Origin: Schoenoplectus triqueter
Taxonomy: Eukaryota; Streptophyta; Magnoliopsida; Poales; Cyperaceae
Direction of reading: 5' to 3'
DNA: 28,116 nt
Assembly (NCBI GenBank): GCA_964058805.1
Contig: CAXKVV010001644.1
Coordinates: 1 to 28,116, forward strand
Shown here: positions 3,244 through 28,116 of the stretch, piece by piece
Layout: each line of letters starts with the position of its first letter
How positions within the stretch are numbered: the stretch's first letter is position 1
Notes under the pieces: model-generated
What the model was told of the DNA's origin: nothing
Seen by the model: the letters and a program-made list of their open reading frames with translations, nothing else
The model's database searches: none
Position numbers and translations under genes: made by a program

Positions 3244-5100
3244 TATGTAAAAGTAACACTTGACAATATACATTAGCAATAGTCAATAATAAAGTATTTT
3301 TAATTATAACACATAATTTCACAAATAAGCTAGTACAATGTCACAGCATGCATGTCATTCACAAGGTACGACTAATTAATGTGAAAAAGGTTCTCAAACA
3401 GAAACAGTCACACTCATAAACCCGACAGAAGACCAACTCGAGGATTGCGACAGCAAATCCAAAGCCCATTAAATGTATTGCGTTTCTCCATCTATTTGAC
3501 TAATTTTCCCTATGCAGGCCGGCCAAGTGAGACTGGAAATAAGCGAGTGCTTCCTTCAAAATCCCCAAACCTTGGAATTAGAGAATCAAACCCTTATGTG
3601 AATGAGATCCAAATGGGACCAAAATTTTAACTTAATTAAGGCGACAACTGTTAACTAAAAGTCAAGGTGGCCATCATACTCTACTGCCATTTCTCCTAGG
3701 TTGTTATCTTAGTAGACTGACATTATGAAAATCAGAGCTTCCTCAATATCTTTATTCTTTATTAAAAATGTAAATATTCTGATTTTCTAACAGTTAAATT
3801 TTTTTATTAAATTTCTAGAGCTAATATTAGTTATCAGATTGAGTTATTAATAAAAAATATTATTATCTCTATAATTATTTGTGTTGAATTTATAATTTTC
3901 TTTCAATTTTAATTGTTACACAAAATACTGCATAATTTAGGAGTATAATTGCTCTACTTTATTTTATTTTTTTCTTAAATTATCATTAATTATGATTTTA
4001 ACTTTTTTTTTAAATTTCAAATGTCAACTTTCTTCTCAATTCTGTATTTATTTTACAGCATTTATGTAAAAATGACTGGAATTTATATTAATTATTAAAT
4101 TATTTTTATTTTTATTTATTTTTTCAAATGAAAATATAATTTTTTATATTTTTAAAAAAACATCACCGTAGCAACATATAGATAAAATACTAGTATCTTC
4201 AAAAAAGATATCATGTCCATGGCCTTCTTCTAGATGGGAATTTGTATAGCAAGGAATTAATCGTGGGTGATTGTTGTAAGTTTTAATGCGTAAAATTGTT
4301 TTTGTGCAATAATTTTTATTTGGGTGCAATTAGGCATAGGTGTGTTTCTGAAGTACGCTAACTTGAATTGTCCATCTATTAATGTATTTTTCATCGCTCT
4401 CTTCGAGGCAAGTTCAATTTTTACTTCATTTAAAAAGAAATTTCCGGAACGTTTTCGATAAAATTGATGATGGCAATCCACCTGGTTTATTAAAAGCAAA
4501 TGAATTTTTTTTTTTTTGTAGTCGGTACTAGCTGCGTGCCTAAAAATACAAAACCTCACAAACGATGTACCGGTAAAAAAAAATCCTAACGTTTGATAGC
4601 ATAGCTTGCCAGAACAACATATTGCTAATAGAAATCAGGAATTGAAATAGAAAACAGATCAACATAAACATTATTAAGTTTTGCAAAAATAAACCTTGAG
4701 AAACTAATTTTTGTACAATTCAGTTTGTCTTTCAAATCACAAGAACCTCCATCTCCATGAGTTGCCTTCTTGAAAATGATTTATTGACAGCTGGTCCTTC
4801 CATTTCTTGTGATATCACAAGGATTAGTTTAAAAGAATATAATTCTGATTTGCTTATTCTAGCGAGTCCAATAATTTGCATATCTTGAGACCTAATTAAG
4901 ACCTAGTTAGTCTACATTTAGTTAATTTACCATATTGGAAAAATATCCCTCTACCGGTGAATGCGTAAATTATTGGAATATGAAATATCAAACGAGACAA
5001 AATGTACATATCGCAACGCTGCTTAATATTTGACCTATAAACACCATACATATTTAATTATATCCTCAAAATAAGAAGGGCTCTTTAAATTATAAATTGC
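3244..5100. other. AT-rich intergenic DNA, no gene seen
   Basis: The ORFs here (3445-3630 plus; 4144-4329 and 4257-4559 minus) are short, low-complexity and lack recognisable domains. From about 3770 to 4140 the sequence is almost pure A/T. I see no RNA gene. Confidence 0.5.
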
Positions 5101-12776: not shown

Positions 12777-13710
12777 GAACCCCTCAAATAACAAGTTTAA
12801 ATGCAGTTTTTAATATATCCGAATTAAGTTTTGTGTAAAATTAGTATTGTAGAATGTTCATATCGCGGTGTTATTTGAAAAATATTGTAACGGACAATAT
12901 TATGAGTATCTATATGAATTTGCAGAAATTCATTTGTAGTTATGAGGAAATAAATTATGAAAAACTAAAACAACTATTTAAAACAGAACATCTTAATGCA
13001 TCTTTGTTAAGTTTTGTTCAAAATTAGTGCCGCAAAATTTTTATATTGATGTTTTAATTGAAAAATCTTACAATAAACATAATTATGAGTATTTACTTTT
13101 ATTGGTACGAATTTATTTGTATTTATGAGGCTGAATATGAAGAAACACTCAAACAACTAGTTTGAAATGCAGTTTTTAATGCATCTCAATTATGTTTTGT
13201 GCAAAATTAGTGTCATAAAATAATCATATTGTTGTCTTCATTGTAAAATCTTATAGTAGATATAAGCAGGTGTATTTATATGAATTTGCAAGAATTCATG
13301 TGTAGTTATGAGGTCAAAATTGTTAAAAACTCAAACACCTTGTTTGAACTGATGTTTTTAATGCATCCGAATTAAGGTTTATGAAAATTAGTGTTGTATA
13401 GGGTTCATATCGAATTGTTAATTATACAATCTCACAAAAGATATAATTAGAAGTATTTATATCAATTCACACAAATTTATGTGCATATAAAGCCTAAAAC
13501 GATGAAAAACTCAAACAACTAGTTTAACAGCAGTTGTTAATACATCCCAAATAAGTTTTGAGTAAAATTAGTACCGTAGAATATTCATATCGCAGTATTT
13601 ATTGAGAAATACTGTAATAGATATAATTAGGAGTATTTATATGAATTTGGACGAATTCAAGTGTTATTACGAGGCAAACAATGATGAAAAACTCAAATGA
13701 CTTGTATAAA
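12777..13710. repeat. Tandem repeat, about 181-bp unit, about five diverged copies
   Basis: The block CTCAAACAACTAGTTTAAAT or a variant, followed by GCAG and TTTTTAATGCATCC, recurs at about 12781, 12966, 13146, 13328 and 13508, and in part at 13690. Steps are about 181-185 bases. Each unit continues with AAGTTTTGTGCAAAATTAGT, TTCATAT and ATGAATTTGCAAGAATTCAT-like words. That last word is itself a hairpin (ATGAATT/AATTCAT), perfect in unit 3 and altered in others. Unit length is satellite-like but copy number is small. The array stops abruptly at the left edge of the large inverted repeat. Confidence 0.85.
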
Positions 13711-13875
13711 TGTTTACCCTTGAAAAATTTCAAGGATGAATAGATGAATAAATGAAATAAATTGATGATAAATCATAAGAAAGGGGGAGAAGAAAGAGAG
13801 CAGTGGAAAGGTGGCCCACTGATCAGGAAAGGTCGCTGCATAACCCCGGAACAAATCCATTAGTCCCACAATGGA

Positions 13876-13982
13876 ATGCTGAGCGCAAAGTGAAGAGTAT
13901 AAATACCCCGCTATTCTCTATCCACTCAGCATGTGTGACACCCAAGAAGATCGAGGGAGAGAGGAGACCTCTTGGGTGTCAC
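13876..13982 (+). other. Structured unit 1: TATAAATACCCC loop plus 13-bp hairpin
   Basis: Nested stems: ATGCTGAG (13876-13883) pairs with CTCAGCAT (13925-13932), and inside it AGAG (13894-13897) pairs with CTCT (13916-13919) around TATAAATACCCC (13898-13909). Next, GTGACACCCAAGA (13935-13947) pairs perfectly with TCTTGGGTGTCAC (13970-13982) over a purine-rich loop (GAGGGAGAGAGG). The same hairpin is kept in the right arm (about 24937-24984). TATAAATA could also be a promoter element. Confidence 0.7.
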
Positions 13983-14086
13983 CATGTGATTTTATCTTTT
14001 CTGACAAGTGGGACCCACACGGCAGTCCCTTATGAGCAGCTCCAATGACATGGACCTAGCCTATTTTGTTAAGAAAGCTAACCAAC

Positions 14087-14230
14087 CCGGAACAGAGGTT
14101 AAGCATTAATCCCACAATGAAATAATATGGTGAAAGACGAGGATATAAATACCCCACCACCTCCTACTCATTCGAGGTGGCTGACCCTCGGGAGATTTAG
14201 GAGAGAGAAAATCTCTTGATGGGTCAGCCA
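14087..14230 (+). other. Structured unit 2: same conserved loops, different stems
   Basis: A diverged tandem copy of unit 1. TATAAATACCCC returns at 14144-14155, now flanked by GAGG (14139-14142) and CCTC (14160-14163). The downstream hairpin is now TGGCTGACCC (14178-14187) with GGGTCAGCCA (14221-14230), plus inner GAGATTT/AAATCTC (14192-14198/14209-14215) around AGGAGAGAGA. Upstream, TAACC/GGTTA flanks CCCGGAACA, a word shared with unit 1. Stem bases differ from unit 1 but remain complementary. Confidence 0.65.
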
Positions 14231-14520
14231 TTTGATTATGTTTTCTCTGACAAGTGGGACCCACCTGGTAGCCCCTTGTAGATGAACCTAATAGCATAGC
14301 CTATCTGATGAGTCATCCATATGGCCATTTTCACTGACAGGTGGACCCCACACCTCAGTGACCTATTGAAGAATTGAACCCTAGAAATCTGCCTTTGAAG
14401 CTAACCCTAGAAAGGAGCTGAAGCAGTATGATCCCTATGCTACATGAAATGATGTCAATGCCAAGCTAGCATTTTGATGCAACTAATCATGAGAAATTCC
14501 AAATGTGATTTTGCTTTCGA

Positions 14521-14755
14521 GGCTGACCTGGTGCCAAAGCTGCGAGCAACCACCTAACCATGCTTTGATTTGTGTCAATTACTGATAAGTAGTCAGTTAT
14601 TTGACCAAGTCACCCTCATGTTAAGGGATTGAAAGTCAATTTCACAAGACTGATCAGGTGCCAAAGCTGGGAGCAACCACCTGATCAAGTCTAGATTTGT
14701 ATTAATTGCTGATAAGTAGTCAGCATTTGATCAAATCAAGCCCTAATGAATATCA
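14521..14755 (+). repeat. Tandem pair of ~120-bp units with small hairpins
   Basis: GTGCCAAAGCTG-GAGCAACCACCT (first half and second half both conserved) followed by ATTTGT, then CTGATAAGTAGTCAG, occurs twice. In unit B, TGATCAGGTG (14651-14660) pairs with CACCTGATCA (14678-14687). The small hairpin is ACTGA/TCAGT in A (14581-14597) and TGCTGA/TCAGCA in B (14707-14725), over an identical loop TAAGTAG. Both units are present in the right arm (24430-24630). Confidence 0.7.
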
Positions 14756-15157
14756 ATATAAGTCTAATTGGTATTTAGTTAGGGTGGTTTCTGCAAGAGA
14801 GAGATAATTGACAGAGACACAGAGCTACAATTGAGATCAGGGATTAATTCATAAGGAATAATAGGGTTTTATGAATAAAAGAATTTTTAATCCAGAGAAG
14901 GAAGGGTAAAAATGGAATTAAAAATTACAGGGATGATCATCATGAATTTAGGGATTTTTGGTGAAATTTTCATGATTTTTGGATAAGTGGAGCTATCAGA
15001 ATAAATTCAGGGAAGATAAAGGCAGAATAAATGGATTGATCAAAGGCTGAGATTCAATCAAGGGTTCATCTGGGTGCAATCTGGGGACAGAGACACATCT
15101 GGGTACAAACTGGGGATCCTAAGCACACCTACACCGAATCAGAGAAGAGAGAGGGTG

Positions 15158-15590
15158 TGACACGTGTCAGCATCTCATTGGGGCCACCTCATGCCACGTG
15201 TCAGCACCCCATTGGTCCACTTCAGCCATGTGGGCCCCACACCCCTGCAGACCTGACAAGTGGGCCCCACCTATGCCACATGGCAGTCAGCCATTGGTCC
15301 ACATCAGCAGCCATCTCATTCAACAGCTGGACAAATGGCAGCATGCTATAAGGCCACCTCAACAGCCCATTGCCATGTGGCCTTCCCTTATTGGTCCACC
15401 TCACCACTGTGAATCTCACTATGCTATAAGGCGACTGACAAGTGGGCCCCACTGGATGCCACATGGCATGCACTCACTGGTGCCATGTCATCATACAGTG
15501 TGTACAAGGAGGGACACATGGCTCCTTATAATTGGTACAGAGCAACACAAGGTGCCACATGGCACTATCTTACAGGGCCACATCATACAC
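15158..15590. repeat. Array of G-box palindromes and GTGGGCCCCAC words
   Basis: Repeated phrases: TGCCACATGGCA, TGACACGTGTCA, GCCACGTGTCAGC, CATTGGTCCAC, GGCCACCTCA and TGACAAGTGGGCCCCAC, spaced about 50-70 bases. The right arm has the counterparts at 23800-24000 (GCCACGTGGCA, GTGGGGCCCAC). CACGTG is the G-box, ATTGG is a CCAAT box, and GGCCCA resembles TCP site II. The long frames across this stretch (for example 15198-15689) are by-products of the repeat. Confidence 0.65.
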
Positions 15591-17846: not shown

Positions 17847-18500
17847 AACGAAGGCGCACGATTTTCAGCGCATGAACACGAGATTTGATGCGCGAAAACA
17901 CATCTTAAAGGTATCCAACGTCAGTTATAAACCGCGGCTTAAGGGAAAAGGAAGGAGTTGATCTAAACCCTTCATCTCAGATGAGTGAATCTCAAAGTAT
18001 ATCTAATGGCCCAAGTGATTCATAGTCAAATAAGCCTGATCTGGGCCCTTCATCTAATGTGCACCAATCTCAGGAATAGATCCAGCGGCCCAAATAAGTT
18101 TATAATGAAATAAAGGTATATGATAATCTGGATGTAAATCTGACGGCCCAGATTAGGCCCAATAATTAAATAATAACAGAATAGTAATAATATAGAATAA
18201 ATGAATGATTTGAAAATGTTATTGAACTCCAAATTGACTCAAATTTGTTTCTAAAATTTTCTTATTTTTCATACTATTTTTCTATACAATAATATTCCAG
18301 TTTTAGAAATATAATCATGATAAAACAATTTAAAAGCAAAATACATTACATATATTGATAAAGTTGACCTAGCTTTGACTTGTCATTTTAAATACTATAA
18401 AAATTCCAAAAATACAAATAAAAATCACAAATAATAATTAGATATATTTTACTGATTTTCAAGTGATTTTCCATGAAATAATAATGGTGATAATAATATA

Positions 18501-18680
18501 CCTGTGCGACCCTTTCTCGCGCGCCGCCGCACCGCCGCCGGGCGATGGGTTCTGCGGAAGAAGGACACGGAGATCCCTCCCGAGCGTGCATCTGCATGGG
18601 TGTCGGCTGATTCTGCCGATTAGAGATGTTTGGATGCACATTCAGGGGGTTTTTTAGTGATTGTGAGTTCTTGTAGATTC
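18501..18680. other. GC-rich leader of the central region
   Basis: An abrupt change at 18501 from AT-rich arm to GC-rich sequence (CGCGCGCCGCCGCACCGCCGCC). On the minus strand it is open in two frames and ends with ...CGCACAG|GTATAT, a donor-like site right at the arm boundary. It may be a former exon joined to arm sequence. The product is unknown. Confidence 0.35.
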
Positions 18681-18702
18681 CGGTGGGCGCAAGCCCCCAC
18701 CG
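18681..18702 (+). other. GC-rich stem-loop with GCAA loop
   Basis: CGGTGGG (18681-18687) pairs with CCCACCG (18696-18702), with an inner C-G pair closing a GCAA tetraloop of the GNRA class. It stands at the head of the hairpin array. A TATAAAA word at 18801-18807 separates it from the array proper. Confidence 0.55.
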
Positions 18703-18819
18703 TTAATTACCCTGGGCTACGAACCTCGAGGCACCTCTGGATCTTTGAAAGAGAGAAGCAAATAGTATAGTTAAGAGATGGGCAAGTGGTCGTCTAAGTT
18801 TATAAAATGGATCTACGGA

Positions 18820-19410
18820 AGATGAACCTACCAACAGACCGGTTCAATCTAGGGAAGACAAAACCTACAAACAGATCGGTTTTATCCTATGGGGGACGAA
18901 CCTACAAACAGACCGGTTCAGTCCATGCCTCCTCGAGATGTAACCTTACCAACAGACCAGGTTAATCTCTTCATAGGGGGCTTGAGGTGAGTCTACATAC
19001 AGACCGACTCGACCTCCGTTGATCTAGAAGATAAACCTACAAACAGACCGGTTCAATCTTGACTAGTCAACAACCAATCACACAAAATACAACTCGAAGC
19101 ACTGAGCCGGTTGATCTTGAGGTTGGTGAATCAGAAGAAGGGTGGATATGGCCCACGTGTTTCTTCTCACTGATCTTCTAGATCATGAATTCGTAGCACT
19201 AAGCCGATTCATAAACCTAGGAAACACAATTGCACACAATGTCAAACATGAAGCGCTGGGCCAGTTCAACATTGAGGCATGTGTTAGTGAAGGAACCTAC
19301 CTACAGACCGGTTCACATTCACTGTTTTGTGGATGAATCTACCAACAGACCGATTCAATCTCACATTCTCGGGAAATGAGTCGGGAGACAAACTCGTCGA
19401 CGGACGAATT
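18820..19410 (+). repeat. Hairpin family A: conserved TACMAACAGACC loop, covarying stems
   Basis: At least eight copies share a 12-base loop, consensus TAC(A/C)(A/T)ACAGA(C/T)C, with complementary but different stems. Inner stem pairs: GAACC/GGTTC (18824-18845); AAAACC/GGTTTT (18860-18883); GAACC/GGTTC (18898-18919); TAACCT/AGGTTA (18941-18964); GAGTC/GACTC (18989-19010); AAACC/GGTTC (19033-19054, one A-C mismatch); GAACC/GGTTC (19293-19314); GAATC/GATTC (19335-19356). In most copies one unpaired base follows the 3' strand, and a second helix then pairs: GGAC/GTCC, GAGAT/ATCTC, GAGGT/ACCTC, AAGAT/ATCTT, AGTGAA/TTCACT. A ninth, degenerate copy lies at 19386-19416. Confidence 0.85.
19083..19274 (+). 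repeat. Hairpin family B: TCGAAGCACTGAGCCG-type loop
   Basis: Three copies with a 16-base loop and differing stems. CAAC/GTTG encloses TCGAAGCACTGAGCCG (19090-19113). ATGAAT/ATTCAT encloses TCGTAGCACTAAGCCG (19185-19212). AAC/GTT plus outer CAATGT/ACATTG encloses ATGAAGCGCTGGGCCA (19237-19274). They lie in the middle of family A. Confidence 0.7.
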
Positions 19411-19430
19411 CAGTCTTGCCAGCTCAAATG

Positions 19431-19721
19431 GTCATGAATTACTTGTTCATGACACCGAGTCATTAAGATGTCACTTCGCTCGGACATCGTAATGTTCTTC
19501 ATCTTCAAAGTCGACATATCTCTCCATGCTGATGTCGTAGCTTTGGTCAATCTTCAACGAGCGTCAAGATGTTCTTGTCTCGACTAATCTTTCTATGTGT
19601 TGCATTACTTGTGCAAAATTACTATGTAGCCCTACACCCCTTGTGTGAGCGTATTCAATCATGAGTTACTTGCTCATGGCAGCGAGTCATTAAGATGTCA
19701 CCTCTCTAGGACATCGTAATG
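19431..19721 (+). repeat. Hairpin families C and D (two linked copies)
   Basis: Family C: loop TTACTTG in GTCATGAA/TTCATGAC (19431-19453) and in CATGAG/CTCATG (19660-19678); the closing pair changes from A-T to G-C. Family D follows each C: CATTA-a-GATGTC / GACATC-g-TAATG (19461-19494 and 19688-19721), an 11-bp helix with one internal mismatch and variable loop. C and D therefore form a composite unit repeated about 227 bases apart. Confidence 0.7.
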
Positions 19722-20012
19722 TTCTTCTTCTTCAGAGTCACAACTCTAATTATCCTTCATCAAATGTCAAGATGTTCCTGTCTCGACATATTTCTTCATG
19801 TCGCTATCGAAGCCTTAATCTTCTCACGTCGAGATGTTCTTGTCTCAACGCATCTTCTTCATATTGCTATTGAAGCCTTAATCGTCCTACGTCAAGATGT
19901 TCTTGTCTCAACGTATTTTATTATTATTCATCAAATGTCAAGATGTTCTTGTCTCGACATATCTTCTCATATTGCTATTAAATCCTACGTCAAGATGTTC
20001 TTGTCTTAACTA
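19561..20012 (+). repeat. Hairpin family E: AAGATGTTCTTGTCTC loop, six copies
   Basis: The loop word recurs at 19566, 19769, 19831 (first base G), 19894, 19940 and 19992, mostly 45-65 bases apart. Stems alternate between ATGTC/GACAT (19764-19789, 19935-19960) and TACGT/ACGTA (19888-19892/19911-19915). There are weaker CGT/ACG and GTC/GAC versions, and the last copy is degenerate. Between copies a shared spacer CTATTGAAGCCTTAATC appears. The six-frame ORF over this stretch (19719-20009) is low-complexity repeat and not a gene. Confidence 0.75.
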
Positions 20013-20066
20013 ATCGTTCTAAATGTTGTGTGAATATTCTCATGTGACTCTACACTCCTTGTGTGA
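19634..20066 (+). repeat. Hairpin family F: ACAC-(C/T)CCTT-GTGT
   Basis: CTACACCCCTTGTGTGAGC (19632-19650) and CTACACTCCTTGTGTGAGC (20050-20068) each form ACAC/GTGT over a 5-base loop. Both copies are preceded by related words (TATGTAGC / ATGTGACT) and seem to end blocks of the array. Confidence 0.6.
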
Positions 20067-20127
20067 GCATCTTTTATTCATTTCAAAAATATGTAAAGCC
20101 TATATAATACTTTCTATTATTATGCAT

Positions 20128-20132
20128 TTATC

Positions 20133-20163
<31 letters not shown>
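20128..20163 (+). repeat. (ATT)n microsatellite
   Basis: A run of ATT triplets at the junction between the hairpin array and the AT-rich direct repeats. Confidence 0.9.
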
Positions 20164-20169
20164 TTGTTT

Positions 20170-21120
20170 ATTCTATTTATCTATGTAGAAAATTATTTAC
20201 AAAAATAATAAGAAAAGGGGTAGCTATTAACTTAGAACTTTATTTATATTTTTGGGATTTTTATAATAGCTAAAATAGTAGAATTTTATTTTTATTATTT
20301 CTAAACTCTATTTATTCTATAGAAAATCACTTACAAAAATAATAGAAAATAAAATGGCTATGATTTTTATTTGTATTTTAAAATGTTTATAATAGCTAAG
20401 GTAATAGGATTTTATTATTATATTCTATTATATTGAAATACTATTCATTATGTAAGAATCATTTACAAAATTAAAAGGTGATTAGCTATACTATTTTACT
20501 ATTATTATTTTTATTATTTATTTTTTTTTTATTTTTTAATATCTATAATAGCTAAAAGAAATCATTACTAATATTCTATCTTACTTATTATACTATTCAT
20601 TATATCTATTTTTATTATTTCTATTTATTATCTATAGAAAAGTATAAGATTTTTTATTACTAATTGAAAATAGTCATAAGAGATGAAATTCATTATGTTT
20701 TTTTATTACAACTATTATTTTTATTACATTTTATTCATCAAAAGTATATATTTTTATATTTGTAAAGAAATACAAAAGAAATACAATTCATATTATAAAA
20801 CTATATTATTATTCTTTATTGTAAAAGAAAATGTATTTATTACAATAGTAGTATATTTTGTATATTTTGTGCTATTTATTTTTATTATTCTTTTTACAGA
20901 AAATATCAATATAATATCTATTATTATTATATACTTTTTTTTTATCCAAGAATATAGCTAATTTCATTATTTATTATAGCATATTACTATCATCATTATT
21001 ATTTCATGGAAAATCACTTGAAAAATCACTAAAATATATCTAGTTATTATTTATGATTTTTATTTGTATTTTTGGAATTTTTATAGCATTTAAAATGACA
21101 AGTCAAATCTAGGTCAACTA
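20170..21120 (+). repeat. AT-rich direct repeats related to the arm's inner end
   Basis: Units of about 130-170 bases contain TATAGAAAATCACTTACAAAAAT, then ATGATTTTTATTTGTATTTT, then TTTATAATAGCTAA. They recur at about 20180, 20320, 20450 and, more diverged, to 20700. The right arm's inner end (21003-21110: GGAAAATCACTTGAAAAATC, GATTTTTATTTGTATTTTTG) is another copy, and the left arm's inner end (18370-18480) carries the inverted copy. The arms therefore end within a pre-existing repeat array. The short ORFs here are not convincing. Confidence 0.6.
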
Positions 21121-21567
21121 TATCAATATATGTAATGTATTTTGCTTTTAAATTGTTTTATCATGATTATACCTCTAAAACTAGAATATTATTGTATAGA
21201 AAAATAGTATGAAAAATAAGAAAATTTTAGAAACAAATTTGAGTTAATTTGGAGTTCAATAGCATTTTCAAATCATTTATTTACTCCATATTATTATTAT
21301 TCTGTTATTATTTAATTAATGGGCTTAATCCCGGCCGCCAGATCTGCTCTGAGATTGGTGCGCATCTTTCTAACTCTCTTCTTCACTTGGGCCGCTAGAT
21401 TAATTTGAGATAAGTGTTTAATGGATCTACGGCCCAGATTAGCACAGAGTTATTATTTAAATGTTTAAACATATCTGGGCCGTTAGATTTAATTAAGATA
21501 CGTATCTAATATGTATAAGGCCCAGATCTTCTTCCGTTTAAATTTTCGAACTATCACCAAATCCCAC

Positions 21568-21861
21568 TCATTGAAGATTCTTCAAGATTAGCGAACGCTT
21601 CAAGAATCGTGCAGAGGATCTCTTCTCAGTCCCTGACCTCCTGTTGCGTTGAGATTCGCGTGTAATGGCGTTCCCGACGACCGGAGCTCTTCTTCTCCGA
21701 TCAGACCTATGCCCTAGCGTCGCCTCACTTCGGTGAGCCTCTCTGTAGTCTTTGATTGGAAATCCATGCGGTGACAGGCTTTGCATGATAGTATCGATGA
21801 GTATGTCAGTTAAAGTCGGTACCGAAATGCTTTCTTCATCAAATTCGACAGAATTAATCAA
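21568..21861 (-). other. Block conserved between arms, 97-codon open frame (right copy)
   Basis: An open frame without an ATG at its start (the first codon is TTG), ending in a basic region (SDRRRRAPVVGNAITRESQ, then RNRRSGTEKRS). The left arm version shares the basic block but is interrupted upstream. Coding potential is uncertain. Confidence 0.3.
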
Positions 21862-22042
21862 AGTTCTTGATGATTACAAGGTCGAGGAGCATCGTCTAGA
21901 CATGAATATGCGATATAGGATAGGCAGAGGGCTTCCCTTTCGTTCTTGAAGGTGCTGAAGCAACTCACCACACGGCAATACATGGTACCGGCCGGTACCG
22001 ATCTTAATTGACTCAATTCATGGCCCTTATTCATCCAATTAG

Positions 22043-22105
22043 CACTCCTCAGGCCTAAAGGCACACCTAGGCATAGCTAGGGCCAGTGGCTCACTGAGTT
22101 GAGTG
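22043..22105 (+). other. Structured two-stem module, copy A
   Basis: Outer helix CACTC-CTCA (22043-22051) with TGAG-TT-GAGTG (22095-22105). Inner helix CCTAG (22066-22070) with CTAGG (22077-22081), loop GCATAG. Between the helices lie the unpaired-looking words GGCCTAAAGGCACA on the 5' side and GCCAGTGGCTCAC on the 3' side, which copy B shares while its helices differ. Confidence 0.65.
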
Positions 22106-22353
22106 TTAATTTGAATAGATTTAGATTTGAGAACTCGGCGATATACTGATTTGTGCCAGAATTGAAGTGATTACAAGAATTAACTAATATATTCAACTGG
22201 AATCATGCAATTGATATGACTAGGAACTAGGAGATTATCACCTATTATCTATTATGCAAATACAAGTAAAGAATTTGAATAGCAAACGAGAAAGTCATAA
22301 AGAAACAGTATAACAGTAAAATAGGAATTGAATTATAAACTTCCAATGCTTTC

Positions 22354-22424
22354 TTGACTGATCCAGGCCTAAAGGCTCACCAATCACTTTGTGATTGGGC
22401 CAGTGGCTCACTGGATTCAGTCAA
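22354..22424 (+). other. Structured two-stem module, copy B
   Basis: Outer helix TTGACTGA-TCCA (22354-22365) with TGGA-T-TCAGTCAA (22412-22424), 12 bp with one bulged T. Inner helix CCAATCAC (22380-22387) with GTGATTGG (22391-22398), loop TTT. The words GGCCTAAAGGCTCA and GCCAGTGGCTCAC are the same as in copy A. Both helices changed on both strands while the joining words stayed. Confidence 0.65.
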
Positions 22425-22771
22425 TTACTATTGATTAGGGTTATTAAAGAAAGAACAAGAAAATGCAGAAAAGAAAATGTAAAAAAGATAGAACAAATTC
22501 TTAAAGAAAAGTAGCAAGAACAGAAAAGAAATCAATTGACTGTTTAACTAGCTATATCAAAGTTCTAAATTCATTTACAGAAATTAAAAAGAATTGCCAA
22601 TTGAATGCATGAACAACTAACCTCTCAATCTGAATAGTAATCTAAATCAATTGATTTCTTTGTAATCTCTCTTCTTCTTTGTAATTGGCGACTGCTAGTG
22701 TATATCCTCTCTCAATTGCTCTACTAATGGATGTATGGATATCTCTCTCCTCCACTGTTGCTGGATTTTCG

Positions 22772-23033
22772 GTTTATATAAGCTAATTAGGCCGGTTAAA
22801 CCCAATTGTGATTGGTTAGCTGCCTTCCACTCGGATTGCCACCTTGGGTTCATCTTCACCCTCCATTCTAACTCAATCAACGGCCCAGATAGGTTTGTGT
22901 TTGTTTTCTAACCGCTTTCTGTTATTCTTTGACTGTGCCGAGATTTAGTTTGACTTCACACTCTTAATTACCCATGTAATCTCGACTGACAAGCGGGCCC
23001 AAGGTCATTACTCACTATTTAAACATTCCATGA
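22772..23033. promoter_or_regulatory. Putative divergent promoter, right arm
   Basis: Minus-strand TATATAAAC (22780-22772) points to the centre, and plus-strand TATTTAAA (23026-23033) lies about 320 bases before the ATG at 23353. Spacing between the two boxes (about 250) is close to that in the left arm (about 300). A GCGGGCCCAA word (22993-23002) lies in the interval. Confidence 0.45.
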
Positions 23034-23352
23034 TCACTCTGACTGCCATTTCATTCATTCACCATTTCCAATTTCACTGAATTCATTTCTGCCCCGTTTC
23101 CTTCTTTTGATCAATTAGCATCTCATACTTCAAATTGCCTCATCAATACACCTCCATTGGCGTCGCCTTGCCCTAAAGGATCGACCTTGCAGTGCAATTT
23201 GATCTCCAGAGTGTCAATTCACCCCTTCTTATCAACTCAATTCTCGGTAATAAACCGATTTCGTCCTTCGTTCATCCCTTTTCATCTGTTGATTCAATAG
23301 CACCTATAATTCGGTCGCCTAGTCATCACTATCCATCAGATCATCTTCAATC

Positions 23353-23518
23353 ATGGTGAGGCGTCAAGGGAAGCGGAAGGCGCAAGCTTCGGTTGAATCG
23401 GGCAATGGCGAGAAGAAGAGGGAGGGAGAAGGCTCTTCCGCTAGCTTGGATGCGCATGGCACACGTGATCCAAAGGGCAGAAGAGAAACGGAGCAGCGAC
23501 ATAGGGCTCATGCGCCAG
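23353..23518 (+). CDS. Likely first exon of the PMD gene (basic N-terminus)
   Basis: ATG at 23353, MVRRQGKRKAQASVESGNGE then KKREGEG and RRETEQRHRAHAPG, ending CCA G|GTTTATC in phase 1. The next PMD exon has a good acceptor (pyrimidine-rich, then GTATTGTAG at 25315-25323) that is also phase 1, which joins as APV-LSHDAIPRRP. A basic head suits nuclear entry. The mirrored copy in the left arm keeps start, basic character, exon end and phase, which supports a real exon over a chance ORF. The intron would be about 1.8 kb of arm sequence. The join is inferred. Confidence 0.5.
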
Positions 23519-25218
23519 GTTTATCTCTCTCTTGTTTTCTTTTTAAATTCAGTTGCGTTGAACTGAATGAATAGGCTATATAGACTTGGTTCATGGCTTA
23601 GCTATGCGCCTCTATCTGAATCTCTGACTATTGGGCCCCATTGTCAGATGTAAATGGGCTTAGGAGTGGCCATGTCAGCGATTTTAGGATTAATCATGCT
23701 AATGTGGCGTGTTTCTATTGGCTGCTTCATCTGATCTGGCAATGTTTATATTAATCACCTTGTTTAATTTGCTGATTGTGCATTAATCTTATGAGTGACA
23801 CATGGCACATGATAGGGTCCACCTGTATAATCTTGGTCCAATAGCCTGTTGCCATGTGTATCGACTGTAATTAATATGGTGAGGTGGCCTCTTCTGGTTG
23901 TCTGCCACGTGGCACTAAGGTGGGGCCCACCTGTCAGTGACTCATACCTGGGTGGGGCCCACTTGCTGACATGGCCCAATGAGAGGCTGCCACGTGGCAC
24001 ACCCTCTCTCTTCGATTATTTTATACTTCCTGTGTTTCTTGTACCCAGTTTGTACCCAGAGCTGCTGTTATCCCCAACTTGCACCCAGGATTGCTCTGAT
24101 CAAATCTCAGCCTTTGATTAATCTATTTAATCTGCCTTTATTTTCCCTGAATTTATTCTGATAGCTCCACTTATCCAAAAATTATGAAAATTTCACCAAA
24201 AATCCCTAAATTCATGATGATCATCCCTGTAATTTTTAATTCCATTTTTACCCCTCCTTCTCTGGATTAAAAATTCTTTTATTCATAAAACCCTATTATT
24301 CCCTCTGAATTAATCCCTAATCTCAGTTATAGCTCTGTGTCTCTGCCAATTATCTCTCTCTTGCAGAAACCACCCTAACTAAATACCAATTAGACTTATA
24401 TTGATATTTATTAGGGCTTGATTTGATTAAATGCTGACTACTTATCAGCAATTAATACAAATCTAGACTTGATCAGATGGTTACTCCCAGCTTTGGCACC
24501 TGATCAGTCTTGTGAAATTGACTTTCAATCCCTTAACATGAGGGTGACTTGGTCAAAGAACTGACTACTTATCAGTAATTGACACAAATCAAAGCATGGT
24601 TAGGTGGTTGCTCGCAGCTTTGGCACCAGGTCAGCCTTGAAAGCAAAATCACATTTGGAATTTCTCATGATTAGTTGCATCAAAATGCTAGCTTGGCATT
24701 GACATCATTTCATGTAGTATAGGGATTATACTGCTTCAGCTCCTTTCTAGGGTTAGCTTCAAAGGCAGATTTCTAGGGTTCAATTCTGACCATCTTCAAT
24801 AGGTCACTGAGGTGTGGGGTCCACCTGTCAGTGAAAATGGTCACATGGGTGACTCATCAGATAGGCTATGCTATTAGGTTCATCTGCAAGGGACTGCCAG
24901 GTGGGTCCCACTTGTCAGAAAAGATAAAATCACATGGTGACACCCAAGAGGTCTCCTCTCTCCCTCGATCTTCTTGGGTGTCACACATGCTGAGTGAATA
25001 GAGAATAGCGGGGTATTTATACTCTTCACTTTGCGCTCAGCATTCCATTGTGGGACTAATGGATTTGTTCCGGGGTTATGCAGCGACTTTTCCTGATCAG
25101 TGGGCCACCTTTCCACTGCTCTCTTTCTTCTCCCCCTTTCTTATGATTTATCATCAATTTATTTCATTTATTCATCCATTCATCCTTGAAATTTTTCAAG
25201 GGTAAACAAAGAGCCACC

Positions 25219-25260
25219 CACCAAGACGAGTCTTGAACGCTCGAAAGGCTTGTCTTGGTG
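25219..25260 (+). other. Stem-loop just outside the right arm
   Basis: CACCAAGAC (25219-25227) pairs with GTCTTGGTG (25252-25260), with inner GAG/CTC. It lies in the inferred intron directly after the inverted repeat ends, and resembles the hairpin-rich style of the arms. Confidence 0.5.
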
Positions 25261-25323
25261 CATTATTCCTTATTATTCATCATTTCATTTCTCATGACGT
25301 CTTCTCTTCTTCGGGTATTGTAG

Positions 25324-28116
25324 TTTTATCTCATGACGCCATTCCGCGCCGCCCCTTGAGTCATTATCATTCTTTTTACGAGGATCCTAGCGATTGGACT
25401 CCTCTCATCTCAGCCATCCGAGCGACTCCTGTCTACCCGCGAGGCGGCGGTTTATTCTTCAGGGATGATCAGCCTCATGACATCATGCCCCTTCAGCCCT
25501 TAGGCGTTGCTTCTACAGCTCCTTTGACACATCTCCTGGGCAAGGAGATTATCGACGGGGAGGCTCACAGATGGACTACTGCTCCCTTCATCACTCCCTT
25601 AGAGTGCCATGGATATCAGCTAGAGTGGACCCGGTATGTACTCATGCGGGAGGGGACTCTGCTCAGGCGAGCCGGGATATATGACTCGGTCTTCTTGTCG
25701 ATGTTTCATTATCATATCGACACACCCTGGCTATGGGCCTTTTGTGAGCGGTGGAACTATTCCACCAACACTCTGTTCATCGACGATCGAGAGCTGACTC
25801 CGACCCTCCTAGAGATACAGCAGTTGACCGGGCTGCCGATCTTTGGTCATTTCTATGACGAGTTCATGGTCTCGCCCGCTGACTCGGGAGACCTCACTCG
25901 ATTCCCGCCTTCTTTGCACAGGATTTATGAGATTTATCATCATTTACGGAGGGGGCATCCCGGAGTTCCGTTCAGACATTGGATCGCCTATTTCACCGAT
26001 CGGGTCCACACTCGCCCTACGGGTCTAGCTTCCACCAGAGACCCATTTGGTACAGGTCGGCTCGAGATTCACCACGACGGCCCTATCCCATCTCAGGATA
26101 CCCTGTGTTCACATGACGTGGATCGGGAGACTTATTTGACAGCTTTCATCTCTTGGTGGATTTGCTATTTCTTATTGCCTAGCTCCCCCGCATACACCAT
26201 TCGGCCTTCGGTGTTCATTATGGCGAGCCTGATCGCGCATGGCGACAGGATTTCTTTGGCCGTGCCTGTTCTGGCCAACATTTATAGATGCCTTCGCGGT
26301 TTGACTTCATCTCGTAGTCCTTCACAGTGCCAGGAGCTGATCCCGTGGCATCTGATTAGCGGATGGCTCCATTTGCATTGGTCTGGCTCATATGATCCCG
26401 GCATGGCGGTCATGCTACGAGATCGCCTACCCATATTGAGTGACTTAGCTGGGGTGCAGCCAGCTTCATTGACTCCGGAGGCTGCCCGGTATAGATTCTT
26501 CAGGAGTCGAGACCATCTGCGCTTCTCCCGAGACAGATCAGTGGCCCGTGGGACATCCAGGGTTGCTGACAGGATGGTGATTGACAGCAGAGTTCCCTCT
26601 TCTGACTCTTCTAGCATTCGAGCCAGGCCTATTGACTTGGAGTACCTGATCAGTATTCGTCAGGGCTTTCTTCCTCTCAGATTGGGCGATCATATGTTCA
26701 TTGAGCCCTATTCGCCACATAGATGTGCACATCAGTTCGGCTTGGATCAGGATATTCCAGCGCCTCTTCTCCGCCCTATATCACTGGCGGCCGATTTGGA
26801 GGGTATCGGATGGTGCTACACTCACCTCTTCCGACTAGGCACGGGCACTCGCTATCAGATGGTATCCACTTCTAGGACTTCCACCTTCACGAGGCGTTAT
26901 CAGCAGTGGTATTATGAGACCATTCGCTCTTACCAGTCGTATACTCCTCCGGTGGTCGTCCGGAGTACATGTCCGCGAGATGGCCAGCCTCTGTTAGATG
27001 GCACCGTTTCGCGTGATCGCAGCCCTTTCCCGGCTATTGCTGCAGAGCCTGTCGACTTTCAGGGTTTAGACAGCCGGTTTTCTCATGCTCCTGTTAGGAC
27101 CATTCTCACAGGTATGCTTCATTACCCTTTAGGTTATTTCCTTTTAACAAGCCTCATCTCATTTAGACCAATTCTCTTTTGATTCAGAGCTGGCTTATGA
27201 GTATGATCACGCGGAGCCCGGGTTCTCGGTCCCTCGTCCACGAGTAGTTGGCGTTCATTCTCAGCCACATGTCGAGTCACCGGCTCCAGCTGCTATGGGG
27301 AGGGATCGAGACAGCGCCTCTCAGCCGTCTTCTCCATCTTCTTTCCCTTCTCCCACTCCGGGTGATTTTCTTTATTGACTCGCCTATCCTTATTCGGGCG
27401 CACTTCATTTACACTTCTGATTAGGGTTTATTTTTCAGCTCGTGATACATCTCCTGTGGTGGCTACCCAAGACGACATCATAGCAGATCTGTCGGCGCCT
27501 GCGAGCACTGCTATTCCAGGGCTTTGCACCGACCTTGCCGTCGCAGGTTCGTGTGCTTCATTTAATACCTAGTTGCCAGCATGCACTAGTATTTTCATTC
27601 TTACATGTAGATTTTACAGACCCTGAGGCCGATGACATGGCATCCCCACACCGCTCGGAGCCTTTCTTTCATGACGGCCCCGCTTCTCCGTCGATCTTGC
27701 TGGTACCCACTGGAGACGGTGATTCATTTGATGTGGTTCTGGGGCCAGTGCTCACTCTTGCACTACCAGAGGAGGCTCCTTTAGAGCAGGGGAGTCCATC
27801 GGCTGTCGAGCCCACAGGCGACGAGCCATTACTGATCGAGGGAGGACCATCTCATACTTTTTCATCTCCCGACGGGCAGCCTCTCATGGCCACAGATGGC
27901 AGAGTCTCGACTGAGCGGGTTGCAGTCGACTACGACTCAGAGTTGGATGAGAGCTGGCTGGTGGAGCAGCTATTCCACAGCCCAGAGATGGAGATTCCGG
28001 CTGGCGAGGGTCTCGCCGAGCCTCATGCTTCTCCCGGTATCTTATATTTCCTTTTGTCTTTTGCCCGTATTTTATTTTTCATGTATTTATGCTTTCTATT
28101 TTATTTTGCAGCCGGG
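25324..28116 (+). CDS. Plant mobile domain (PMD) protein, multi-exon, 3' end outside window
   Basis: Exons by frame and GT/AG borders: 25324-27111, 27188-27361, 27439-27546, 27620-28036 and 28112 onward. Every junction is phase 1, and no in-frame stop occurs in about 830 codons. The PMD (aminotransferase-like mobile domain, PF10536 type) shows RAGIYDSVFLSMFHYHIDTP, WLWAFCERWNYSTNTLFI, then RELTPTLLEIQQLTGLPIFG, followed by a conserved-looking helical part (FISWWICYFLLP, LANIYRCLRGL, WHLISGWLHLHW). Small exons downstream encode a Pro/Ser-rich, then acidic tail (SWLVEQLFHSPEMEIP). PMD proteins occur as host genes (MAIN/MAIL, silencing and genome stability) and as transposon cargo. The open frame suggests a gene that is intact or recently so. 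The frame runs back to 25206 without an ATG, so an upstream exon is needed. Confidence 0.8.

What the first reader, a model, noticed from the sequence alone, without database searches (positions are those of the whole stretch)
18820..19365. Hairpin array with fixed loop and compensatory stems (family A)
Seen directly: at least eight copies of a 12-base loop (TAC-A/C-AACAGACC type) flanked by stems that differ between copies on both strands: GAACC/GGTTC, AAACC/GGTTT, TAACCT/AGGTTA, GAGTC/GACTC, GAATC/GATTC. In most copies one base is unpaired on the 3' side, and a second helix outside it also changes in a complementary way (GGAC/GTCC, GAGGT/ACCTC, AAGAT/ATCTT). Point mutation of a spaced repeat without constraint would destroy pairing. 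Inference: either a folded RNA/DNA structure is selected and the loop is a binding site, or quasi-palindrome repair by template switching keeps restoring the stems. I know of no named plant element with this form.
Basis: partly seen in the sequence, partly recalled or inferred. Interest (0 to 1): 0.93.

Follow-up and report, generated by a model that had tools for sequence, protein, structure and literature searches.

The report
Hairpin array in plant retrotransposon leader
A row of hairpins with fixed loops and changing but still matching stems sits in the leader part of a giant plant retrotransposon, which suggests that the element's RNA is under selection to keep many copies of a small folded docking site.

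Summary
Eight 12-base loops (TACNNACAGA[CT]C) lie at 18829-19351, with stems complementary copy by copy (p about 0.001, 0 of 500 shuffles on four of five measures). They lie in the LTR (window 18503-25208) of a Ty3/gypsy Tat retrotransposon (about 29 kb in one full copy); one hairpin matches 193 times in the genome. The polymerase runs on the minus strand, so the array sits in the 3' part of the sense LTR, between a TATA-like box (20101-20106) and the LTR end, where a primer-binding-site-like sequence follows in other copies. Four more repeated hairpin groups and two single hairpins share this stretch. Among 59 distinct arrays, shared changes mostly avoid stems; one outer pair switches G-C to A-T, its one intermediate being G.U in sense. 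A second, diverged family in the same genome (13 copies aligned) has other hairpin repeats there; sense G.U exceeds A.C (175 against 42 cells; random pairs 3814 against 4620). This favours selection on folded sense RNA over DNA palindrome repair. Folding energies do not tell the strand. Most likely: a structured leader of the genomic RNA whose loops are read by a protein. That role is inferred; no expression or binding data.

The parts
18503..25208 (-). LTR (6706 bases) of a giant Ty3/gypsy Tat retrotransposon; sense 5' end at 25208 (TGTTTACC...), sense 3' end at 18503 (...GGTCGCACA)
   Evidence: Homology of other copies starts at 18501-18503 with differing flanks before TGTGCGACCC; other end at 25208 by comparison of the two LTRs of copy C2061, whose outer flanks share CTTGT
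18818..18851 (-). Hairpin A1 (H1), loop 18829-18840
18854..18890 (-). Hairpin A2 (H2), loop 18866-18877
18891..18927 (-). Hairpin A3 (H3), loop 18903-18914; outer pair 18894/18924 is G-C or A-T in different LTR copies
18935..18971 (-). Hairpin A4 (H4), loop 18947-18958
18982..19018 (-). Hairpin A5 (H5), loop 18994-19005
19026..19062 (-). Hairpin A6 (H6), loop 19038-19049
19285..19322 (-). Hairpin A7 (H7), loop 19298-19309
19328..19365 (-). Hairpin A8 (H8), loop 19340-19351
18681..18702 (-). Hairpin near the LTR end, sense CGGUGGG-GGCUUGCG-CCCACCG; CAGUGAG-GGCUUGCG-CUCACUG in the second family
19085..19280 (-). Three hairpins of group B (loop GGCYYAGYGCT, sense starts 19108, 19205, 19262) with different stems
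   Evidence: stems read by eye, no statistics
19130..19189 (-). Long hairpin shared with the second family (L095:2331-2388, 80% identity)
19432..19680 (-). Three hairpins of group C with loop CAAGUAA and unlike stems (sense loop starts 19445, 19611, 19672)
   Evidence: no shuffle test
19463..19725 (-). Two copies of group E (GATGTC...GACATC), stems alike in both
19560..20015 (-). Six hairpins of group D with loop CARGAACA (sense loop starts 19577, 19780, 19842, 19905, 19951, 20003)
20101..20106 (-). TATATA, TATA-like box just upstream (sense) of the hairpin region; promoter role inferred
   Evidence: TATTATAT in 26 of 31 distinct flanks of this kind in the fetched loci (some listed); start site not tested
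18734..18809 (-). LTR segment complementary to the region just after the primer-binding-site-like sequence in 5' LTR copies; duplex predicted, no covariation found
25206..27182 (+). ORF of 658 aa (stop to stop) with plant mobile domain (PF10536), antisense to the polymerase, next to the LTR

Best explanation
The array is part of a highly structured RNA leader (R-U5 part of the LTR, then the primer binding site) of a giant Tat-lineage LTR retrotransposon. In the minus-strand transcript it folds into a chain of some two dozen small hairpins in several groups. Each of the groups tested keeps its loop sequence and lets the stem drift as long as it pairs. Shown: location, orientation, stem conservation and compensation, G.U tolerance mainly in the sense strand, and a second family with different hairpin repeats in the same place. 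Inferred: transcription starts near 20,070, and the loops are docking sites for an RNA-binding protein (most likely the element's Gag nucleocapsid, otherwise a host protein), the many copies giving strong multivalent selection of the genomic RNA for packaging, dimerisation or priming rather than translation.
For: Stem complementarity across the eight copies: 39/40 pairs, p = 0.00125; 8 of 9 pairs changed on both sides, 0/500 shuffles. Polymerase on the minus strand in copy C2061: RT, RNase H, second RNase H, integrase in one 1176-aa frame. Sense LTR end is followed by GGATC-TGGCACGCCCGGTGGGACC in copies with an internal side. Among 59 distinct arrays, sites with a minor-base count of 5 or more (deletions not counted): 3 of 150 stem, 8 of 76 spacer, 9 of 24 at loop places 4, 5 and 11, 0 of the other 72 loop sites. 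Outer pair of H3: G-C 35, A-T 23, one intermediate that is G.U in sense. Stem mismatches across copies, H2 left out: sense G.U at 7 pairs (4 of them in 2 or more copies), sense A.C at 3 pairs and other mismatches at 3, all single copies. Group D, 71 stems, inner 7 pairs: G.U 88, A.C 9; own arms pair better than shuffled arms, 0 of 2000. Second family, 13 copies, 104 pairs: G.U 175, A.C 42 cells; 41 pairs against 14, p = 0.0004; eight kept sequences 36 against 14, p = 0.003; random Watson-Crick-majority column pairs give 3814 against 4620; 24 cells changed on both sides against 13.0 shuffled, 0/500. A homologous hairpin near the LTR end keeps its loop and changes two pairs compensatorily between families.
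Against: Folding-energy z-scores do not single out the sense strand: window array -3.43 sense and -4.06 antisense, next stretch -4.72 and -2.68; of two other LTR segments used as controls one reached -3.31 and one gave 0.44; the second family's antisense strand has the lower energy (-200.6 against -168.1; z -3.49 and -4.32). In group D the own-arm test is passed as well when A.C instead of G.U is counted as a pair, and the two outermost pairs show G.U and A.C equally, 20 and 20. In the second family pairs changed on both sides (13 against 9.2, 19/500) and further pair types (70/500) are weaker. The LTR-internal long-range duplex shows no covariation. Copies are related, so counts of cells are not independent events. 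The A2 structure was drawn partly from one of its own sequences, which inflates paired percentages and the slide control. No start site, RNA reads, probing or protein binding could be tested; the packaging role rests on analogy.
Confidence: 0.72

Rival explanations
1. DNA-level palindromes kept by template-switch (quasi-palindrome) correction during replication or reverse transcription; no selection on a fold.
For: Would also give complementary stems around a fixed loop; single copies show extra partial array pieces; an inverted copy of an LTR part lies just after the primer-binding-site-like sequence.
Against: Correction restores Watson-Crick pairs on both strands alike, but stems keep G.U in the sense strand and less often A.C, and unconstrained column pairs show no such excess. 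At the level of shared variants loops keep nine of twelve positions while spacers drift.
Confidence: 0.08
2. Double-stranded enhancer repeats bound by a plant transcription factor, for example MYB-type sites around ACCTACC, as recalled for the Tto1 L-box.
For: Loop and stem edge read ACCTAC[CA] on the + strand in five of eight copies (H1, H2, H3, H6, H7); LTRs carry enhancers (passages of PMC3485330).
Against: Three of eight copies change the ACC part together with its partner (H4, H5, H8); the array lies on the sense 3' side of the TATA-like box; the one second-family copy searched for the loop lacks it yet keeps hairpins.
Confidence: 0.1
3. Sense-RNA structure, but acting on translation or splicing (internal entry, ribosome shunt, or keeping the leader unspliced before the ORF after the primer-binding-site-like sequence) rather than on packaging.
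For: The leader would be over 1.5 kb and full of stems; a pyrimidine-rich stretch ending in GCAG lies just before the ATG of the first ORF (sense of L050).
Against: No 5' splice site or entry signal was tested; fixed loops in many copies fit binding sites better than a scanning barrier (inference).
Confidence: 0.25
4. Chance or inherited similarity of an ordinary tandem repeat.
For: Tandem Repeats Finder sees a 37-bp repeat over the first three copies.
Against: p about 0.001 within eight copies, 0/500 shuffles, and the same pattern in group D and a second family.
Confidence: 0.01

Closest known systems
Ty3/gypsy Tat lineage (Ogre/Retand type) LTR retrotransposons of angiosperms
   Same: RT, RNase H, additional RNase H, integrase order; plant mobile domain ORF; very long LTRs and element (PMC6317226 sections 9 and 13 read)
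   Different: Copy C2061 is about 29.4 kb with 7.4-kb LTRs, beyond the about 24 kb and about 5 kb given in PMC6317226; the two sections read and the passages shown do not mention hairpin arrays
Retroviral and Ty1/Ty3 5' leader packaging and dimerisation signals
   Same: Stem-loops in the leader near the primer binding site (retroviral abstracts in the listing; Ty1 abstract start PMC5454406)
   Different: Here one loop is repeated up to eight times with unlike stems; no Gag binding or packaging shown (PMC4974528: passages only; PMC11381356: listing only)
Long retroviral R regions conserved through stem-loops, and U5-IR stems between LTR and neighbouring sequence
   Same: LTR conservation explained by stems, LTR-to-neighbour pairing (passages of PMC3601003)
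   Different: Those models did not include plant Metaviridae LTRs, whose length variation prevented model building (same passages)
Tto1 L-box and Tnt1 boxes in LTR enhancers (recalled; Tto1 seen only as a reference in PMC3485330)
   Same: Repeated short motif in an LTR, ACCTACC-like core
   Different: Pairing, strand asymmetry and position after the TATA-like box do not fit an enhancer

Membership tests
Ty3/gypsy Tat lineage (Ogre/Retand) | RT, RNase H, then an additional RNase H before integrase | tested here: met
   L062 minus frame of 1176 aa: RVT_1 174-333, RT_RNaseH 423-526, RVT_3 596-708, Integrase_H2C2 816-869, rve 888-985; definition in PMC6317226 section 13
Ty3/gypsy Tat lineage (Ogre/Retand) | LTRs with TG...CA ends and a 4-5 bp target duplication | tested here: met
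   TGTGCG...TAAACA on +; CTTGT before and after copy C2061; duplication checked in this one copy only
Ty3/gypsy Tat lineage (Ogre/Retand) | Placement by RT/RH/INT phylogeny, Ogre or Retand | not tested
   No tree made; plant mobile domain (57% of Ogre in PMC6317226) is present but antisense, next to the sense 5' end of the LTR
Ty3/gypsy Tat lineage (Ogre/Retand) | Primer binding site for a tRNA after the 5' LTR | tested here: inconclusive
   TGGCACGCCCGGTGGGACC five bases after the sense LTR end; not matched to a tRNA
Retroelement packaging/dimerisation signal | Lies between transcription start and first ORF of the genomic RNA | tested here: inconclusive
   Ahead of the primer-binding-site-like sequence and first ORF; start site only guessed from TATATA
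Retroelement packaging/dimerisation signal | RNA fold kept by compensatory change in the sense strand | tested here: met
   folding energy alone does not show the strand
Retroelement packaging/dimerisation signal | Bound by Gag, needed for packaging | not testable with these tools
   needs binding and packaging assays
Quasi-palindrome correction | Watson-Crick restoration without strand preference | tested here: not met
   sense G.U over A.C against control
Known Rfam RNA | Match to a curated covariance model | tested here: not met
   no match at gathering score in the window

The most novel reading that the evidence does not exclude
Giant Tat retrotransposons carry a modular, fast-rewired RNA recognition code in their leader: several hairpin groups, each amplified in tandem with an invariant loop and freely drifting paired stems, replaced by quite different hairpin groups in a sister family, so that leader and binding protein (Gag or the element's extra proteins) co-evolve to tell own genomic RNA from that of relatives in the same cell.
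Probability: 0.3. Interest if true: 0.82.

Novelty: new variant of a known kind. Interest (0 to 1): 0.66.

Why it matters
Plant Ty3/gypsy elements make up much of many plant genomes, and I know of little on their cis-acting RNA signals (recalled, no exhaustive search). This gives a sequence-based, testable candidate: a leader with many copies of a few hairpins, two families in one genome with different sets, and clear predictions for probing and Gag binding. It also shows that stem covariation can be read inside one array of a repeat, without other species.

Tried and rejected
Related hairpins elsewhere: model R1 finds the eight in the window, the only further hit scoring 11.4 bits, E 0.82; patterns for other LTR starts or another base after the primer-binding-site-like sequence gave 0; the loop with R/Y flanks gave 13 matches against 18 reversed controls, chance level; one loop match in C39 has no stem. 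No match in viral contigs or genome contigs, which may leave out the window's own genome; no relative of the RT part in viral contigs. Rfam: nothing. Folding energy as a strand test failed. Long-range duplex around the primer-binding-site-like sequence: predicted in each of the 20 distinct pairs of arms that I found, but matched pairs are no better than shuffled ones (-76.6 against -76.4, 132 of 500), so it is not used as evidence. Enhancer and palindrome-repair readings: see rivals. Group F (ACACAAGG) failed the inner-pair filter in 22 of 24 forms as set up and is not counted. The host species was not identified; a carnivorous plant was considered from assembly size only (paper search) and not tested.

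Literature: full-text searches of the held PMC library listed no paper that by title or abstract start deals with hairpin arrays with covarying stems in plant LTRs; these are capped listings, and most subscription papers are not held.

Rows dropped: 79 array copies collapsed to 59 distinct by the first 600 bases; for the across-copy pair table H2 was left out because its pairing register differs between copies, and deletions were not counted as variants; group D left arms were pre-filtered by their last bases (72 distinct stems of 9 bases left), and 1 of the 72 with fewer than 5 of 7 standard pairs was dropped; of the second family 12 further copies from the 50 matches were fetched, and cells with gaps were set aside.

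Full report
What is there. The finding's eight loops are present on the + strand at the stated place. Shuffling right arms among the eight copies gives 28.5 Watson-Crick pairs of 40 on average; 39 are seen, p = 0.00125. On the alignment of all eight with nine pairs, eight pairs change on both sides in at least one copy and none of 500 shuffles reaches this; of five measures only 'further pair types' is reached by shuffles, 74 of 500.

Where it lies. TACMAACAGACC occurs 394 times forward and 444 times reverse in the 82-Mb assembly, the reversed control 3 and 10 times. Copies are homologous to the window from 18501-18503 onward, and what stands before it differs between copies, except for a constant sequence next to some of them. 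Several contigs hold two copies in the same orientation 17-22 kb apart. For one such pair (C2061) the two long repeats are 99.9-100% identical over the stretches compared, run from 189687 to 197054 and from 211699 to 219065, and are flanked by CTTGT on both sides. So these are LTRs: about 7.4 kb in C2061, 6.7 kb in the window (18503-25208). A C2061 stretch across its LTR end matches window 24888-27553 at 96%.

Which way it reads. In C2061 the frame with RT, RNase H, second RNase H and integrase is on the minus strand, and C2061 has the same orientation as the window. Directly after the sense LTR end come GGATC and TGGCACGCCCGGTGGGACC, the usual place of a primer binding site (not matched to a tRNA). 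The plant mobile domain ORF at 25206-27182 is antisense to the polymerase. The order of domains fits the Ogre/Retand part of the Tat lineage as described in PMC6317226 (sections 9 and 13 read). The window copy therefore shows a 3' LTR: sense 5' end at 25208, sense 3' end at 18503, and the array lies about 317-862 bases from the sense 3' end.

More hairpins. In sense, the stretch 20,070-18,680 holds further groups with fixed loops: CAAGUAA with three quite different stems, CARGAACA six times, GGCYYAGYGCU three times, a fourth group twice with like stems, and two single hairpins. A TATATA at 20101-20106 lies just upstream in sense; TATTATAT stands there in 26 of 31 distinct flanks of this kind among the fetched loci. 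I infer a transcription start near 20,070, so that the hairpin region would be the R-U5 leader; this is not tested.

Selection on the fold. I gathered 79 array copies, 59 distinct. Sites whose minor bases occur in five or more copies (deletions not counted): 3 of 150 stem sites, 8 of 76 spacer sites, 9 of 24 sites at loop places 4, 5 and 11, and none at the other 72 loop sites. Two of the three stem sites are one pair: the outer pair of H3 is G-C in 35 copies and A-T in 23, with one copy in between, which is G.U in sense. The third, in H1, is G.U in sense in 8 copies. H2 changes its register by a one-base deletion together with a substitution in 35 copies, 22 have neither and 2 the substitution only; both main forms pair (reading of the forms is mine).

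Which molecule. Mismatches tell the strand. In sense RNA a G.U pair is tolerated; the same change read on the other strand is A.C. Among the 59 arrays (H2 left out) sense G.U occurs at seven pairs, four of them in two or more copies; sense A.C at three, each in a single copy. In group D, 71 distinct stems show 88 G.U and 9 A.C cells in the seven inner pairs; in the two outer positions they are equal, 20 and 20. These counts include related copies.

A second family. A search with a distant PMD protein (P0019, 37% identical to the window's) gave one row that stood out, C350 (74 of 210 candidates scored). Its LTR starts with TGTGCGACC like the window's but the stretch fetched has no family-A hairpin. 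Instead it has tandem units of about 130 bases, each with three hairpins. In the genome 31 matches at 78-100% identity cover 469 or more of the 561 query bases; I fetched 12 and aligned 13 with C350. RNAalifold on the sense alignment gives 104 pairs, 13 with changes on both sides. For a hairpin-only structure, also of 104 pairs, 94.2% of 1304 cells pair against 92.9% shuffled (0/500), cells changed on both sides are 24 against 13.0 (0/500), the covariation score is 0.192 against 0.170 (0/500), pairs changed on both sides 13 against 9.2 (19/500) and further pair types 68 against 65.3 (70/500). G.U cells are 175 and A.C cells 42; 41 pairs lean to G.U and 14 to A.C (p = 0.0004), and with eight less related sequences 36 and 14 (p = 0.003); random Watson-Crick-majority column pairs in the same alignment lean the other way, 3814 to 4620. 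One hairpin near the LTR end is homologous between the families: loop GGCUUGCG is kept and the stem changes from CGGUGGG/CCCACCG to CAGUGAG/CUCACUG.

Against. Folding energy does not separate the strands, one of two LTR control segments also folds well, and the second family's other strand has the lower energy. In group D the own-arm test is passed with A.C counted as a pair too. The long duplex between the LTR and the region after the primer-binding-site-like sequence is predicted in each of the 20 distinct pairs of arms found but does not covary. Copies are related; the structure of A2 was drawn partly from its own first row. There are no expression, probing or binding data.

Mechanism. The best reading is a structured sense RNA leader whose loops are repeated docking sites, most likely for the element's own Gag, serving choice of genomic RNA for packaging, dimerisation or priming. 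The structure in sense RNA is well supported (about 0.85); the packaging role is an inference (about 0.4), with translation or splicing control as the main rival. Stem-loops in long R regions and U5-IR stems are described for retroviral LTRs (passages of PMC3601003), cis-acting stretches at the ends of the genomic RNA for Ty1 and Ty3 (passages of PMC4974528), and leader stem-loops in packaging for retroviruses (abstract starts in the listing); I found no account of a leader made of loop-conserved, stem-drifting hairpin arrays in the searches named.

Novelty. A structured leader is a known kind; its amplification into several loop-fixed hairpin groups that differ between two sister families is a new variant, to my knowledge and by the searches made.

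Noticed in passing
window 13711-15182 and 18125-18499: Inverted pieces of another LTR of the same family (74-98% to 23975-25208 and 20981-21356; the stretch between gave no long match there), ending next to the array's LTR start; likely a nested insertion into an older copy, the far half lying beyond the contig.
   Followed up: partly
C2061:189687-219065 (L027, L028, L052, L053, L056-L062): Full copy of about 29.4 kb with 7.4-kb LTRs nearly identical where compared, larger than the about 24 kb and 5 kb given in PMC6317226; recent activity likely.
   Followed up: partly
L001, L022, L024, L034, L043, L092: Some copies carry one or more tandem extra pieces of about 146 bases made of the LTR end plus the primer-binding-site-like sequence, perhaps from slippage at a strand transfer.
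   Followed up: no
L050 (sense), just before the first ORF: Pyrimidine-rich stretch ending in GCAG directly before an ATG; possible 3' splice site, so the leader might be spliced out of the mRNA.
   Followed up: no
C2080:175155-175244, C1476:9253-9342: Extra partial array piece (82-83% to query 518-596) overlapping or beside the main match, a sign of hairpin gain in single copies.
   Followed up: no
L030:60-230: Two more CAAGTAA loops with a further stem (TTGA/TCAA) in the LTR-like flank of this locus, outside the leader stretch.
   Followed up: no
window 12783-13697: Tandem repeat of 183/361 bases, five copies, outside the LTR.
   Followed up: no
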